A DNA stretch of 37,841 nucleotides. Source: Gemmatimonadaceae bacterium. GTDB lineage: Bacteria > Gemmatimonadota > Gemmatimonadetes > Gemmatimonadales > Gemmatimonadaceae. A program made the translations under genes and the position numbers. The notes beneath the pieces are model-generated. The model did not search any database and was not told the origin of the DNA. It saw only the letters and a program-made list of their open reading frames with translations. The stretch lies in NCBI GenBank assembly GCA_036504815.1, contig DASXUN010000007.1, positions 1 through 37,841 of the forward strand, written 5' to 3'. Positions 14,198 to 37,822 of the stretch are shown here, one piece after another. The stretch's first letter is position 1; each line of letters begins with the position of its first letter.

Positions 14198-14336
14198 GGA
14201 ACGGGGAGGGGGTAGGGGCTTGGCGAGGGGAAATGGGAGTCGGAACGAGGAGGGAGTTCTCCCGGCGCGCCGGTGAACTCCCTCCTCGTTCCACATCTCG
14301 TCCCTCCTCGCCGAGCCTCTACCCCCTCCTCGTTCC
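14198..14336. repeat. Family A element, inverted pair between converging genes
   Basis: Left arm on the plus strand: GGAACG boxes at 14198 and 14242 (44 bp apart). Right arm: CGTTCC boxes at 14287 and 14331 (44 bp apart). The inner 18 bp (14242-14259 and 14275-14292) are perfectly complementary around the palindrome CCGGCGCGCCGG. The left arm has four runs of at least four G (14203-14230), a G-quadruplex pattern in the lctP 3' untranslated RNA. Confidence 0.88.
14242..14292. terminator. Possible two-way transcription stop hairpin
   Basis: A perfect 18-bp stem enclosing a CCGGCGCGCCGG palindrome lies between the stops of lctP and the AAA ATPase gene. There is no T-run on either side, so an intrinsic terminator role is uncertain; RNA 3'-end protection is another option. 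Confidence 0.4.
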
Positions 14337-14344
14337 GCAGCAGT

Positions 14345-15841
14345 TCACTCCGCGGCCACCGTCCTATGCGACGCCCACCGCCGCAGCGCATCGAGGCGTT
14401 CCGGCATCGTCTTCGAGAGCGGCCGCGTCGCGACGATCTCCGCCTCGAGCGCATCCGTGTCGAGCGGCGTGTTCGACGCGAACGCCGCATACATCGCGCT
14501 GACGATGCTCTCCTCGATTTCCGCGCCGCTGAACCCCTTGGTGGCGGCGACGAGATGCGGAATCTCGACCTTCTCGGGGTCCTGCTTCCGCTTCTTCAAG
14601 TGAATGCGAAGGATCTCGGCGCGGGCCTCGTCGCCCGGAAGATCCACGAAGAAGATCTCGTCGAAGCGCCCCTTGCGAATGAACTCCGGCGGCAGCTTCG
14701 CGACGTCATTGGATGTGGCGACGACAAACACGTCGCCGCGCCGGTCCTGGAGCCAGCTCAGGAAGGTGCCGAAGATGCGATGCGACACGCCGCCGTCGGC
14801 ATCCGCGCTGGCTGACGCGAAGGCTTTCTCCAGTTCGTCAATCCAGAGCACGATCGGCGCCAGGCGCTCGGCCGTCAGCATCGCCCGCTTGAAGTTGTGC
14901 TCGCTCTCGCCGACATACTTGTCGTAGAGGTTCGACGGATCGAGCTTGAGCAGCGGCAGCCCCCACTCGTGCGCCACCGACTTGGCGCACAGGCTCTTGC
15001 CGCACCCGGGCACGCCGAGGAGCAGCACGCCCTTGGGAAAACCGAGCCCGAACTCCTCCGCCCGCCGCGGATCGGCGACCACGGCGCGGCGGCGCTGGAG
15101 CCACGCCTTCAAGCCGCCGAGACCCGCCACCTGGTCGAGGCCTTCGGTGTGCGGGTAGAACTCGAGCAGGCCGTCCTGTTCCACGATCTGCCGCTTGGCG
15201 GCGTTCACGCGCTCGATGTCGCGCGCGTCGAGCGCGCCATCCTCGACGATCAGCCGGGTGATGATCTTCTCCGCTTCGGTGAGGGTGAGTCCCGTCAGGT
15301 TGTTGATGAAGCGCAGGCGGTCTTCACGCGTCAGCTCCACGCGCACCGGCATCTTGGCTGAGTACTCGCGAATCAGCCGCTCCATCAGCTGGCGGTATTC
15401 CTCGTACGTCGCGCCCGAGAGTCGAATGACCGTGGCATGCGGGCGCAGCGCCTCGGGCAGCCGAATGTTGTGCCCCGTGAGCACGAGCGCGCCGCGGCGC
15501 GCGTTGAACTGCTGCACGACGTCGAGCACGTGGCTCACGACCGCTGGGTCGTCCAGGTGCGCGCCCAATTCGCGGAAGTGGAACAACCCCGCGCCCTCCT
15601 CGACGGCGGCCGCCAGCGCCTTCGCGGGATCCTCGGTGTTCGCCATCACCGGATCGGACGCCATCACCCCGCGGCGCAGCCCGCGCGACCGACTCCAGGA
15701 GAAGTAGAGCAGGTTCAGCCGCGAGGAGGCGAGCGCGAGTCCCTGTTCGGCACGCTCAACTTCCACCGTATCCAGGACGATCAGGGCGTACTTGGCCCGG
15801 ATGAGGAGTTCGAGTTCGTCGAAATTGGAGTCAGAGGGCAT
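14345..15841 (-). CDS. AAA+ ATPase, Ycf46-like
   Basis: 498-residue cytoplasmic ATPase of the family that includes cyanobacterial Ycf46; cellular role unknown for most members. The N-terminal 230 residues carry the family's own domain (ELELLIRAKYALIVLDTVEVERAE, then VVSHVLDVVQQFNARRGALVLTG). The AAA core follows: Walker A GVPGCGKS (276-283), LDPSNLYDKYVGESEHNF (a pore-loop-like segment), Walker B IVLWIDELEKA (330-340), sensor 1 VFVVATSNDVAKLPPEFIRKGRFDE with the Arg finger, and GFSGAEIE sensor 2. Start set at 15841: the open frame continues 43 codons upstream, but those translate the family A repeat. Divergent from the type II secretion F-like gene. Confidence 0.88.
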   Translation of the reverse strand: MPSDSNFDELELLIRAKYALIVLDTVEVERAEQGLALASSRLNLLYFSWSRSRGLRRGVMASDPVMANTEDPAKALAAAVEEGAGLFHFRELGAHLDDPAVVSHVLDVVQQFNARRGALVLTGHNIRLPEALRPHATVIRLSGATYEEYRQLMERLIREYSAKMPVRVELTREDRLRFINNLTGLTLTEAEKIITRLIVEDGALDARDIERVNAAKRQIVEQDGLLEFYPHTEGLDQVAGLGGLKAWLQRRRAVVADPRRAEEFGLGFPKGVLLLGVPGCGKSLCAKSVAHEWGLPLLKLDPSNLYDKYVGESEHNFKRAMLTAERLAPIVLWIDELEKAFASASADADGGVSHRIFGTFLSWLQDRRGDVFVVATSNDVAKLPPEFIRKGRFDEIFFVDLPGDEARAEILRIHLKKRKQDPEKVEIPHLVAATKGFSGAEIEESIVSAMYAAFASNTPLDTDALEAEIVATRPLSKTMPERLDALRRWASHRTVAAE

Positions 15842-15843
15842 AC

Positions 15844-37233: not shown

Positions 37234-37772
37234 GCACGGCCGCGCGCCGCCGCGCACGGTGGCATTCGCTCGCGGTCGCCCTCTGTGCGATCGCGCTCGT
37301 CGGCGCGCGGCCGCTGAGCGCTCCGGCGCACCACGTACGGGCGCCGCACGACCTGCATCTCACGCACACGCGCATGGTGATCGAGGGGAACGCCGTCGTC
37401 GCTCGCGTGCGGATGTTCCGGGACGACCTGCAGAAGGCCCTCAAGCGATCCATCGGCGACGATGCCGCCTCCAGGGCCGCCGTTGCCGCATACCTCACGC
37501 AGAACTTCCTGCTCACGGCCGAGGGGACGAAGCTGACCGGCGAGCTGCTCGACAGTGGCGGCGAGATGGACGGCGACCAGCCCATCTACTGGGTGCTCGT
37601 GCAGTGGAAGGCCGCCAAGCCCGTGAAGTCGCTCGGCGTGCGCGTACACCTGATGTTCGAGACGTTCAATGACCAGCAGAACACGGTGCTGGTGGCAAAG
37701 CAGCCGGGCGATGAGCGGAGGGGATTGTACTTCCAGGCGGGGGATAGGACGGAGCAGGTGTTGAAGTTCTAG
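37230..37772 (+). CDS. Small exported protein, DUF6702-like
   Basis: 180 residues, GTG start inside the M1 peptidase stop. Signal peptide or anchor 12-32 (LAVALCAIALVGARPLSA). The body has HHVRAPHDLHLTHTRMVIEGNAVVARVRMFRDDLQKALKR, a FLLTAEGTKLTGEL strand and QPIYWVLVQWKA, matching the pattern of DUF6702 proteins. Several His near the mature N-terminus could bind metal. Function unknown, but co-translation with the M1 peptidase argues for a common role. The stop is followed at once by a family A arm. Confidence 0.72.
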   Translation: MSTAARRRARWHSLAVALCAIALVGARPLSAPAHHVRAPHDLHLTHTRMVIEGNAVVARVRMFRDDLQKALKRSIGDDAASRAAVAAYLTQNFLLTAEGTKLTGELLDSGGEMDGDQPIYWVLVQWKAAKPVKSLGVRVHLMFETFNDQQNTVLVAKQPGDERRGLYFQAGDRTEQVLKF

Positions 37773-37773
37773 C

Positions 37774-37822
37774 GGAACGAGGAGGGGGTAGAGGCCAAGG
37801 GACGGGGAGGAGAGGTGGAACG
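37774..37822 (+). repeat. Family A element, purine-rich arm at window end
   Basis: GGAACG boxes at 37774 and 37817 (43 bp apart), beginning two bases after the last stop codon. The element continues to the window end and may have an inverted partner beyond it. Confidence 0.82.

What the first reader, a model, noticed from the sequence alone, without database searches (positions are those of the whole stretch)
14198..37822. Dispersed family A repeat: CGTTCC boxes a fixed 43-45 bp apart, six arms
Seen: paired CGTTCC (or GGAACG) boxes at 14198/14242, 14287/14331, 15844/15889, 15943/15987, 21797/21841 and 37774/37817. Spacings are 44, 44, 45, 44, 44 and 43. Between boxes the arms share CTC-rich blocks, such as CGTCCCTC, GCCTC and CCCCTCC, that differ in detail. 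All lie between genes, two as inverted pairs. Inference: a short non-coding repeat family under pressure for length, perhaps mobilised REP/MITE-like or templated by a shared process.
Basis: partly seen in the sequence, partly recalled or inferred. Interest (0 to 1): 0.75.

Follow-up and report, generated by a model that had tools for sequence, protein, structure and literature searches.

The report
Gene-end palindromes that change by species
A family of about 140-base DNA palindromes sits just behind the stop codons of some fifty genes in this bacterium, and its relatives keep palindromes at the same gene ends but with each species using its own sequence version, which raises the question of how scattered DNA repeats are kept alike within one genome.

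Summary
Six CGTTCC–CGTTCC arms lie at the stated coordinates (chance 0.16 per window). The genome holds 112 such arms (reversed-sequence control of a matching matrix: 0), nearly all between genes. The full unit is a ~139-bp palindrome: two ~50-bp arms in inverted order around a ~39-bp centre, each arm with two CGTTCC boxes 44 bp apart. In 30 of 34 paired units the nearest gene end is a stop codon, median 8 bp away. Copies occur in seven of eleven genomes of the genus and not in four.

Recent REP/MITE-style hopping is not supported: 29/31, 30/37, 19/23 and 10/10 copies in four relatives sit at the gene end where this genome has one. No REP-type (Y1) transposase was found in this genome. Each species has its own consensus, and a second related family ('B') fills the same gene ends in G009, G008 and G001. 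At three sites traced through the genus, relatives have family A, another palindrome, an ordinary terminator, or nothing.

Best reading: old hairpin sites at transcript ends whose sequence turns over in concert within each genome, probably by copying between copies. Function and copying are inferred. New variant of a known kind (intergenic palindromic repeats).

The parts
14198..14336 (.). Paired family-A palindrome (139 bp): '-' arm 14198-14247, centre 14248-14286, '+' arm 14287-14336; fills the gap between stop codons at 14189 (+, lactate permease) and 14345 (-, AAA ATPase)
   Evidence: (RNA fold -130.5 kcal/mol, z -13); orthologous site in other genomes of the genus
14248..14286 (.). Centre of palindrome 1, an inverted repeat AGGAGGGAGTTC..GAACTCCCTCCT
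15844..15992 (.). Mixed palindrome: '-' arm 15844-15894 (51 bp, diverged) and '+' arm 15943-15992 of the TGCACTCGTCCC (U) type, between divergent genes (AAA ATPase start 15841 -, T2SSF start 16015 +)
   Evidence: family B palindrome at the same site in G009 and G001
21797..21846 (+). Single U-type arm between two co-directional genes (stop 21773; called start 21848); an extra CGTTCC lies at 21778-21783
   Evidence: same gap holds an arm in G005 (L128)
37774..37822 (-). One arm of a palindrome directly after the stop codon at 37772; the contig ends in the palindrome centre (37823-37841)

Best explanation
Family A is a genus-level family of intergenic palindromes (up to ~139 bp). Each is two inverted arms built on a 44-bp unit, with a conserved outer 22 bp (GCCTCTACCYCCTCCYCGTTCC), a variable middle and an inverted-repeat centre. 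The palindromes sit immediately behind stop codons, where the transcript folds into a very stable hairpin. I propose they act as transcript-end hairpins (a bidirectional 3'-end barrier or RNA-stability cap) at sites held since before the species split. I also propose that their sequence is kept alike within each genome by copying between dispersed copies (ectopic gene conversion, helped by the break-prone palindrome), so that each species, and families A and B, drift as a group while the sites stay. Shown: architecture, copy number, gene-end location, shared sites, species-specific consensus, family switching at a site, some empty sites. Inferred: the function in RNA, the conversion mechanism, and common descent of A and B.
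For: Architecture and copy number. Location: 30/34 (G000), 16/18 (G005), 23/28 (G010) and 9/13 (G004) paired units have a 3' gene end as nearest end, median 7-9 bp. Hairpin: window unit -130.5 kcal/mol, z -13; the lon-site gap folds to a strong hairpin in eight of nine species examined despite different sequences, z -6.5 to -16.5. Shared sites: 29/31, 30/37, 19/23, 10/10 and 6/11 copies of G005, G010, G004, G001 and G008 lie at a gene end that carries one in G000, with flanking proteins averaging 84% (G005), 88% (G001) and 83% (G008) identity. Concerted change: arms of different loci in one species (0.73-0.74 identity of the middle in G005, G010) are more alike than orthologous arms between species (0.635, equal to shuffled 0.637), and centres are species-specific. 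Copying: pairs of arms with one middle difference number 9 in G000 against 0.2 expected with columns shuffled, on different contigs or distant loci. Family turnover: family B copies sit at family-A sites, 8/8 loci in G009, 5/7 in G001, all 3 with an ortholog in G008, and the lon site in G007, against 17% of gene ends by background. Sister species G005 and G008 differ in family at the queA site. An A-B intermediate aligns to the A model over 63 positions with one insertion (L342, E 6e-6).
Against: No T-tract follows the palindromes, and the terminator scan does not pick them up. No expression data. The flanks are old enough that neutral middles would be randomised anyway, so lack of locus memory alone does not prove conversion. 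Near-identical copies are few, and linkage between columns is weak beyond a few bases apart from the exact 21/24 swap, which is less than frequent conversion would leave. Selection by a co-evolving binding protein could give the same consensus shifts. Single U-type arms lie near start codons, which the transcript-end idea does not cover.
Confidence: 0.6

Rival explanations
1. A miniature non-autonomous mobile element (MITE/REPIN-like) moved in trans by an unidentified transposase with strong preference for gene 3' ends; families A and B target the same sites independently.
For: Inverted outer repeats, dispersed copies, empty sites in G003, G004, G002 and G006 at the window site, patchy presence in the genus, a few near-identical arms.
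Against: Copies are at orthologous sites in 29/31, 30/37, 19/23 and 10/10 cases; no Y1 transposase found in G000; no target duplication seen in the one empty site read; arms of one unit are unlinked, unlike copies of a whole unit. Other transposase classes were not searched.
Confidence: 0.2
2. Binding or uptake sites for a sequence-specific protein; the consensus shifts between species because the protein's specificity shifts, as with DNA uptake sequence dialects of Neisseriaceae.
For: Species-specific consensus at shared sites, inverted pairs at gene ends as in DUS dialects (PMC3630211), strict 44-bp box spacing, and position-wise constraints such as the exact C/G swap at positions 21/24.
Against: About 110 arms per genome is far below the thousands of DUS copies reported in that paper; essentially none lie in genes; two families coexist in G008 and G001 at different sites.
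Confidence: 0.15
3. Ordinary intrinsic terminators that only look alike because of composition and function.
For: Gene-end position, hairpins, and ordinary terminators at the same site in G003 and G006.
Against: A 22-bp outer sequence shared by about 100 copies and several species cannot come from function and composition alone (reversed control 0); no T-tract.
Confidence: 0.03

Closest known systems
REP / BIME / REPIN elements (with RAYT)
   Same: Extragenic, palindromic, often inverted pairs, at gene 3' ends, persistent populations within a genome; gene conversion has been proposed for REPs (Higgins 1988, cited in PMC3116915)
   Different: Unit is ~139 bp with two boxes per arm, no RAYT found in the host genome, and sites are shared across species with ~85% protein identity while the sequence changes
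ERIC (enterobacterial intergenic consensus)
   Same: From general knowledge: ~127-bp imperfect intergenic palindromes, dispersed in tens to hundreds of copies
   Different: Different phylum; no sequence comparison made; species-specific families at shared sites are seen here
DNA uptake sequence dialects of Neisseriaceae (PMC3630211)
   Same: Species-specific variants kept uniform within a genome, inverted pairs associated with terminators
   Different: DUS are ~10-12-mers in thousands of copies, also in genes; here ~110 long arms, only between genes
GTAG/CGTC-tagged palindromic repeats (PMC3733652)
   Same: Palindromic repeats without an evident dedicated transposase (CGTC class)
   Different: 20-40 bp; Gemmatimonas is not mentioned in that paper's main text; tags at the unit end are absent here

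Membership tests
REP/REPIN | Associated Y1 (RAYT) transposase in the genome | tested here: not met
   PF01797: 0 in G000, one each in G005 and G010, no family-A arm near those two
REP/REPIN | Extragenic palindromes in inverted pairs | tested here: met
REP/REPIN | 20-40 bp palindrome with GTAG tag at one end | tested here: not met
   Unit ~139 bp; GTAG occurs only inside the outer block (GGGGGTAGAGGC), not at its end
MITE | Terminal inverted repeats | tested here: met
   Outer 22 bp of both arms inverted and conserved
MITE | Target site duplication and insertion polymorphism between close genomes | tested here: inconclusive
   Empty sites found but no duplication visible; flanks too diverged
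Intrinsic terminator | Stable hairpin at the 3' end of a gene | tested here: met
Intrinsic terminator | U-tract after the hairpin | tested here: not met
   Sequence after the outer box is CGTTCCG plus unique DNA
DNA uptake sequence | Short 10-12-mer in very high copy, also inside genes | tested here: not met
   112 arms, essentially none in genes
DNA uptake sequence | Needed for transformation | not testable with these tools
   needs experiment
Known RNA family | Match in Rfam 15 | tested here: not met
   0 matches in the window at gathering scores
Integron attC site | GTTRRRY / RYYYAAC core sites flanking cassettes | tested here: not met
   Boxes are CGTTCC/GGAACG; most flanking genes are housekeeping genes with orthologs in place
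ERIC | Sequence homology to the ERIC consensus | not tested
   no ERIC query was run

The most novel reading that the evidence does not exclude
Dozens of fixed gene-end sites per genome carry palindromes whose sequence is rewritten as a group in each species, including a switch from family A to family B at the same site, by an active copying process that needs no REP-type transposase: concerted evolution of dispersed bacterial repeats at locked positions.
Probability: 0.4. Interest if true: 0.8.

Novelty: new variant of a known kind. Interest (0 to 1): 0.6.

Why it matters
How short dispersed repeats stay alike inside a bacterial genome for long periods is open; REPINs, with their RAYT, have been called the only stably maintained such population known in prokaryotes (PMC8049555). 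Here the population persists at the same gene ends across species, no RAYT was found in the host genome, and families replace one another in place. That makes the choice between transposition, conversion and co-evolving selection directly testable with a handful of close genomes. It also explains why assemblies of these genomes often break between genes.

Tried and rejected
RNA helix through the whole arm: middles of paired arms do not covary (27.57 of 38 against 27.78 shuffled) and in G005 and G004 are less alike than random arms. RAYT mobilisation: no Y1_Tnp found in G000. Gene cassettes/attC: box sequence wrong, and most flanked genes are core genes in conserved order; one two-gene stretch between three copies (L041 8668-10639) is absent in G005, so recombination between copies is possible but not general. 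Macrodomain signal (matS-like): copies are dense in one stretch corresponding to contig C4 of G005, but the replication map is unknown; left open. Rfam: nothing. Literature: no paper found on such repeats in Gemmatimonadota; searches for concerted evolution of palindromic repeats gave nothing on point.

Full report
Observation. The six CGTTCC-CGTTCC arms are present with the stated spacings. Six matches to CGTTCCN{30,45}CGTTCC stand against 0.16 expected. In the whole genome (G000; 3.51 Mb, 31 contigs; the window is all of contig C7) the pattern has 120 matches against 27 for the reversed pattern. A 67-position sequence model built from 58 arms finds 112 arms at E<=0.001. A position matrix gives 101 hits in 394 kb around copies and none in the same DNA reversed.

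Anatomy. The basic arm is CGTTCC - 38 bases - CGTTCC, followed usually by G; most listed arms have exactly 44-bp spacing. Two arms in inverted order around a ~39-bp centre make a ~139-bp palindrome. The centre is itself an inverted repeat (AGGAGGGAGGTCnCTGG..CCAGnGACCTCCCTCCT). The outer 22 bp (GCCTCTACCYCCTCCYCGTTCC) are nearly invariant. The middle (positions 7-28) is variable but restricted: in D-type arms position 7 is always a purine, and positions 21 and 24 swap exactly (C..G 36, G..C 22 of 59). Middles of the two arms of one unit do not covary; in G005 12 of 14 units pair one CGTCCC arm with one CCTCGC arm. A second arm type (CGTTCCTGCACTCGTCCC, 'U') is mostly single or in mixed pairs and often lies close to a start codon; examples in the window are 15943 and 21797. 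Several contigs end inside palindromes, which is an assembly effect.

Gene context. With gene calls from a codon-usage script, every copy but one doubtful case is between genes. For paired units the nearest gene end is a 3' end in 30/34 (G000), 16/18 (G005), 23/28 (G010) and 9/13 (G004), with a median distance of 7-9 bp. Neighbours are ordinary housekeeping genes, for example lactate permease, AAA ATPase, RNase HII, Lon; by reading the proteins myself, also recA, alaS, trmD, rplS, dnaG and mutS2. The unit at 14190-14345 folds to -130.5 kcal/mol as RNA (z -13). The terminator scan finds no T-tract terminator there.

Distribution. Same genus: 112 arms in G000, 86 in G010, 65 in G005, 49 in G004, 18 each in G001 and G008, 4 in G009, none in G002, G003, G006, G007. 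Outside the genus the spaced-box pattern is near the level of its reversed control in most genomes.

Old sites. Around copies in five relatives, copies sit at a gene end that also carries a copy in G000: G005 29/31, G010 30/37, G004 19/23, G001 10/10, G008 6/11. Flanking orthologs average 84% (G005), 88% (G001) and 83% (G008) identity. Loci in relatives were chosen because they hold copies, so these fractions describe copies, not all gaps.

Sequence turnover. Orthologous arms are no more alike in the middle than mismatched arms (G005 0.635 against 0.637), whereas arms of different loci within G005 or G010 agree at 0.73-0.74. The centres are species-specific (G010 GACGCGTCCC, G004 asymmetric GGTGAAGGGGGACG). 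Because the species are far apart, neutral middles would be randomised anyway; the point is the shared consensus within each species. In G000, arm pairs with a single middle difference number 9 against 0.2 expected with columns shuffled, at distant loci.

Three sites followed through the genus. queA-tgt gap (both gene names from my reading of the proteins): family A in G000, G004, G005, G010, G001; other palindromes in G008, G009, G003, G006; empty in G007; contig end in G002. Window site 14198: family A in G000, G005, G010; one arm left in G001; family B in G009; empty in G004, G003, G006, G002; a different palindrome and neighbour in G007. lon site: family A in G000, G001, G004, G010; B-type in G008, G009 and a short one in G007; ordinary intrinsic terminators in G003 and G006; nothing in G002. 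At the lon site eight of nine gaps folded form strong hairpins although the sequences differ.

Family B. Pattern CCAAGCCCCYGCAC occurs 18 times in G009, 15 in G008, 8 in G001, 3 in G005, 2 in G000, 1 in G007 and 0 elsewhere in the genus, with 0 for the reversed pattern in all. Copies of B sit at gene ends where G000 has A: all 8 distinct loci read in G009, 5 of 7 in G001, all 3 with an identifiable ortholog in G008, and the lon site in G007, that is 17 of about 20 loci with an ortholog in the fetched set; 17% of gene ends in the fetched G000 loci carry a copy (which computed 17 of 19 as P about 1e-11; sites shared between species are not independent, so this is indicative only). B copy L342 of G009 aligns to the A model over 63 positions with one insertion, so A and B look like branches of one family. 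In a four-protein tree G005 and G008 are sisters (support 100) yet differ in family at queA.

Interpretation. The sites are old, the architecture (hairpin behind a stop codon) is kept, and the sequence family is replaced as a group. The likely role is a transcript-end hairpin, since relatives without it may have an ordinary terminator there; this is inferred. The likely upkeep is copying between dispersed units, perhaps through breaks at palindromes; this too is inferred. Transposition by an unknown transposase and co-evolution with a binding protein remain possible. REP membership fails on two tested features (RAYT not found, unit size and tag).

Limits. Draft metagenome assemblies, own gene calls, stretches rather than whole genomes, no expression data, and a literature library limited to open papers.

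Noticed in passing
window 11862-11993: A second, unrelated palindrome with 11-bp-periodic arms (AGACAACAGAG)n .. (CTCTGTTGTCT)n starts 2 bp after the stop codon of an ABC transporter gene; the motif recurs in other G000 and G005 loci.
   Followed up: partly
L041 8668-10639 (G000 C4:285.7-287.6 kb): Two genes (apparently methyltransferases by reading) lie between three family-A units; G005 lacks both and keeps only a ~25-bp outer block, suggesting recombination between copies.
   Followed up: partly
L308-L327 (G003), e.g. L322:18570-18686, L315:13197-13373, L321:12042-12238: G003, which lacks family A, has its own gene-end palindromes (GAGGACAGGGATCACGG.., ATGGTAGATGG.., CCACGGATGACACGG..).
   Followed up: partly
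G005 C4 (L113-L116) and G000 contigs C13, C31, C22, C9, C29, C14: Family-A copies are much denser in this roughly 100-kb stretch around recA, alaS, dnaG and mutS2 than elsewhere.
   Followed up: partly
window 37841 and ends of contigs C8, C9, C13, C14, C26, C28, C29 of G000: Contigs break at palindrome centres, so copy numbers from short-read assemblies are likely too low.
   Followed up: no
arm positions 21 and 24 (alignment A2 columns 37 and 40): Exact C..G / G..C swap with two bases between, 58 of 59 D-type arms; no structural reason found.
   Followed up: no
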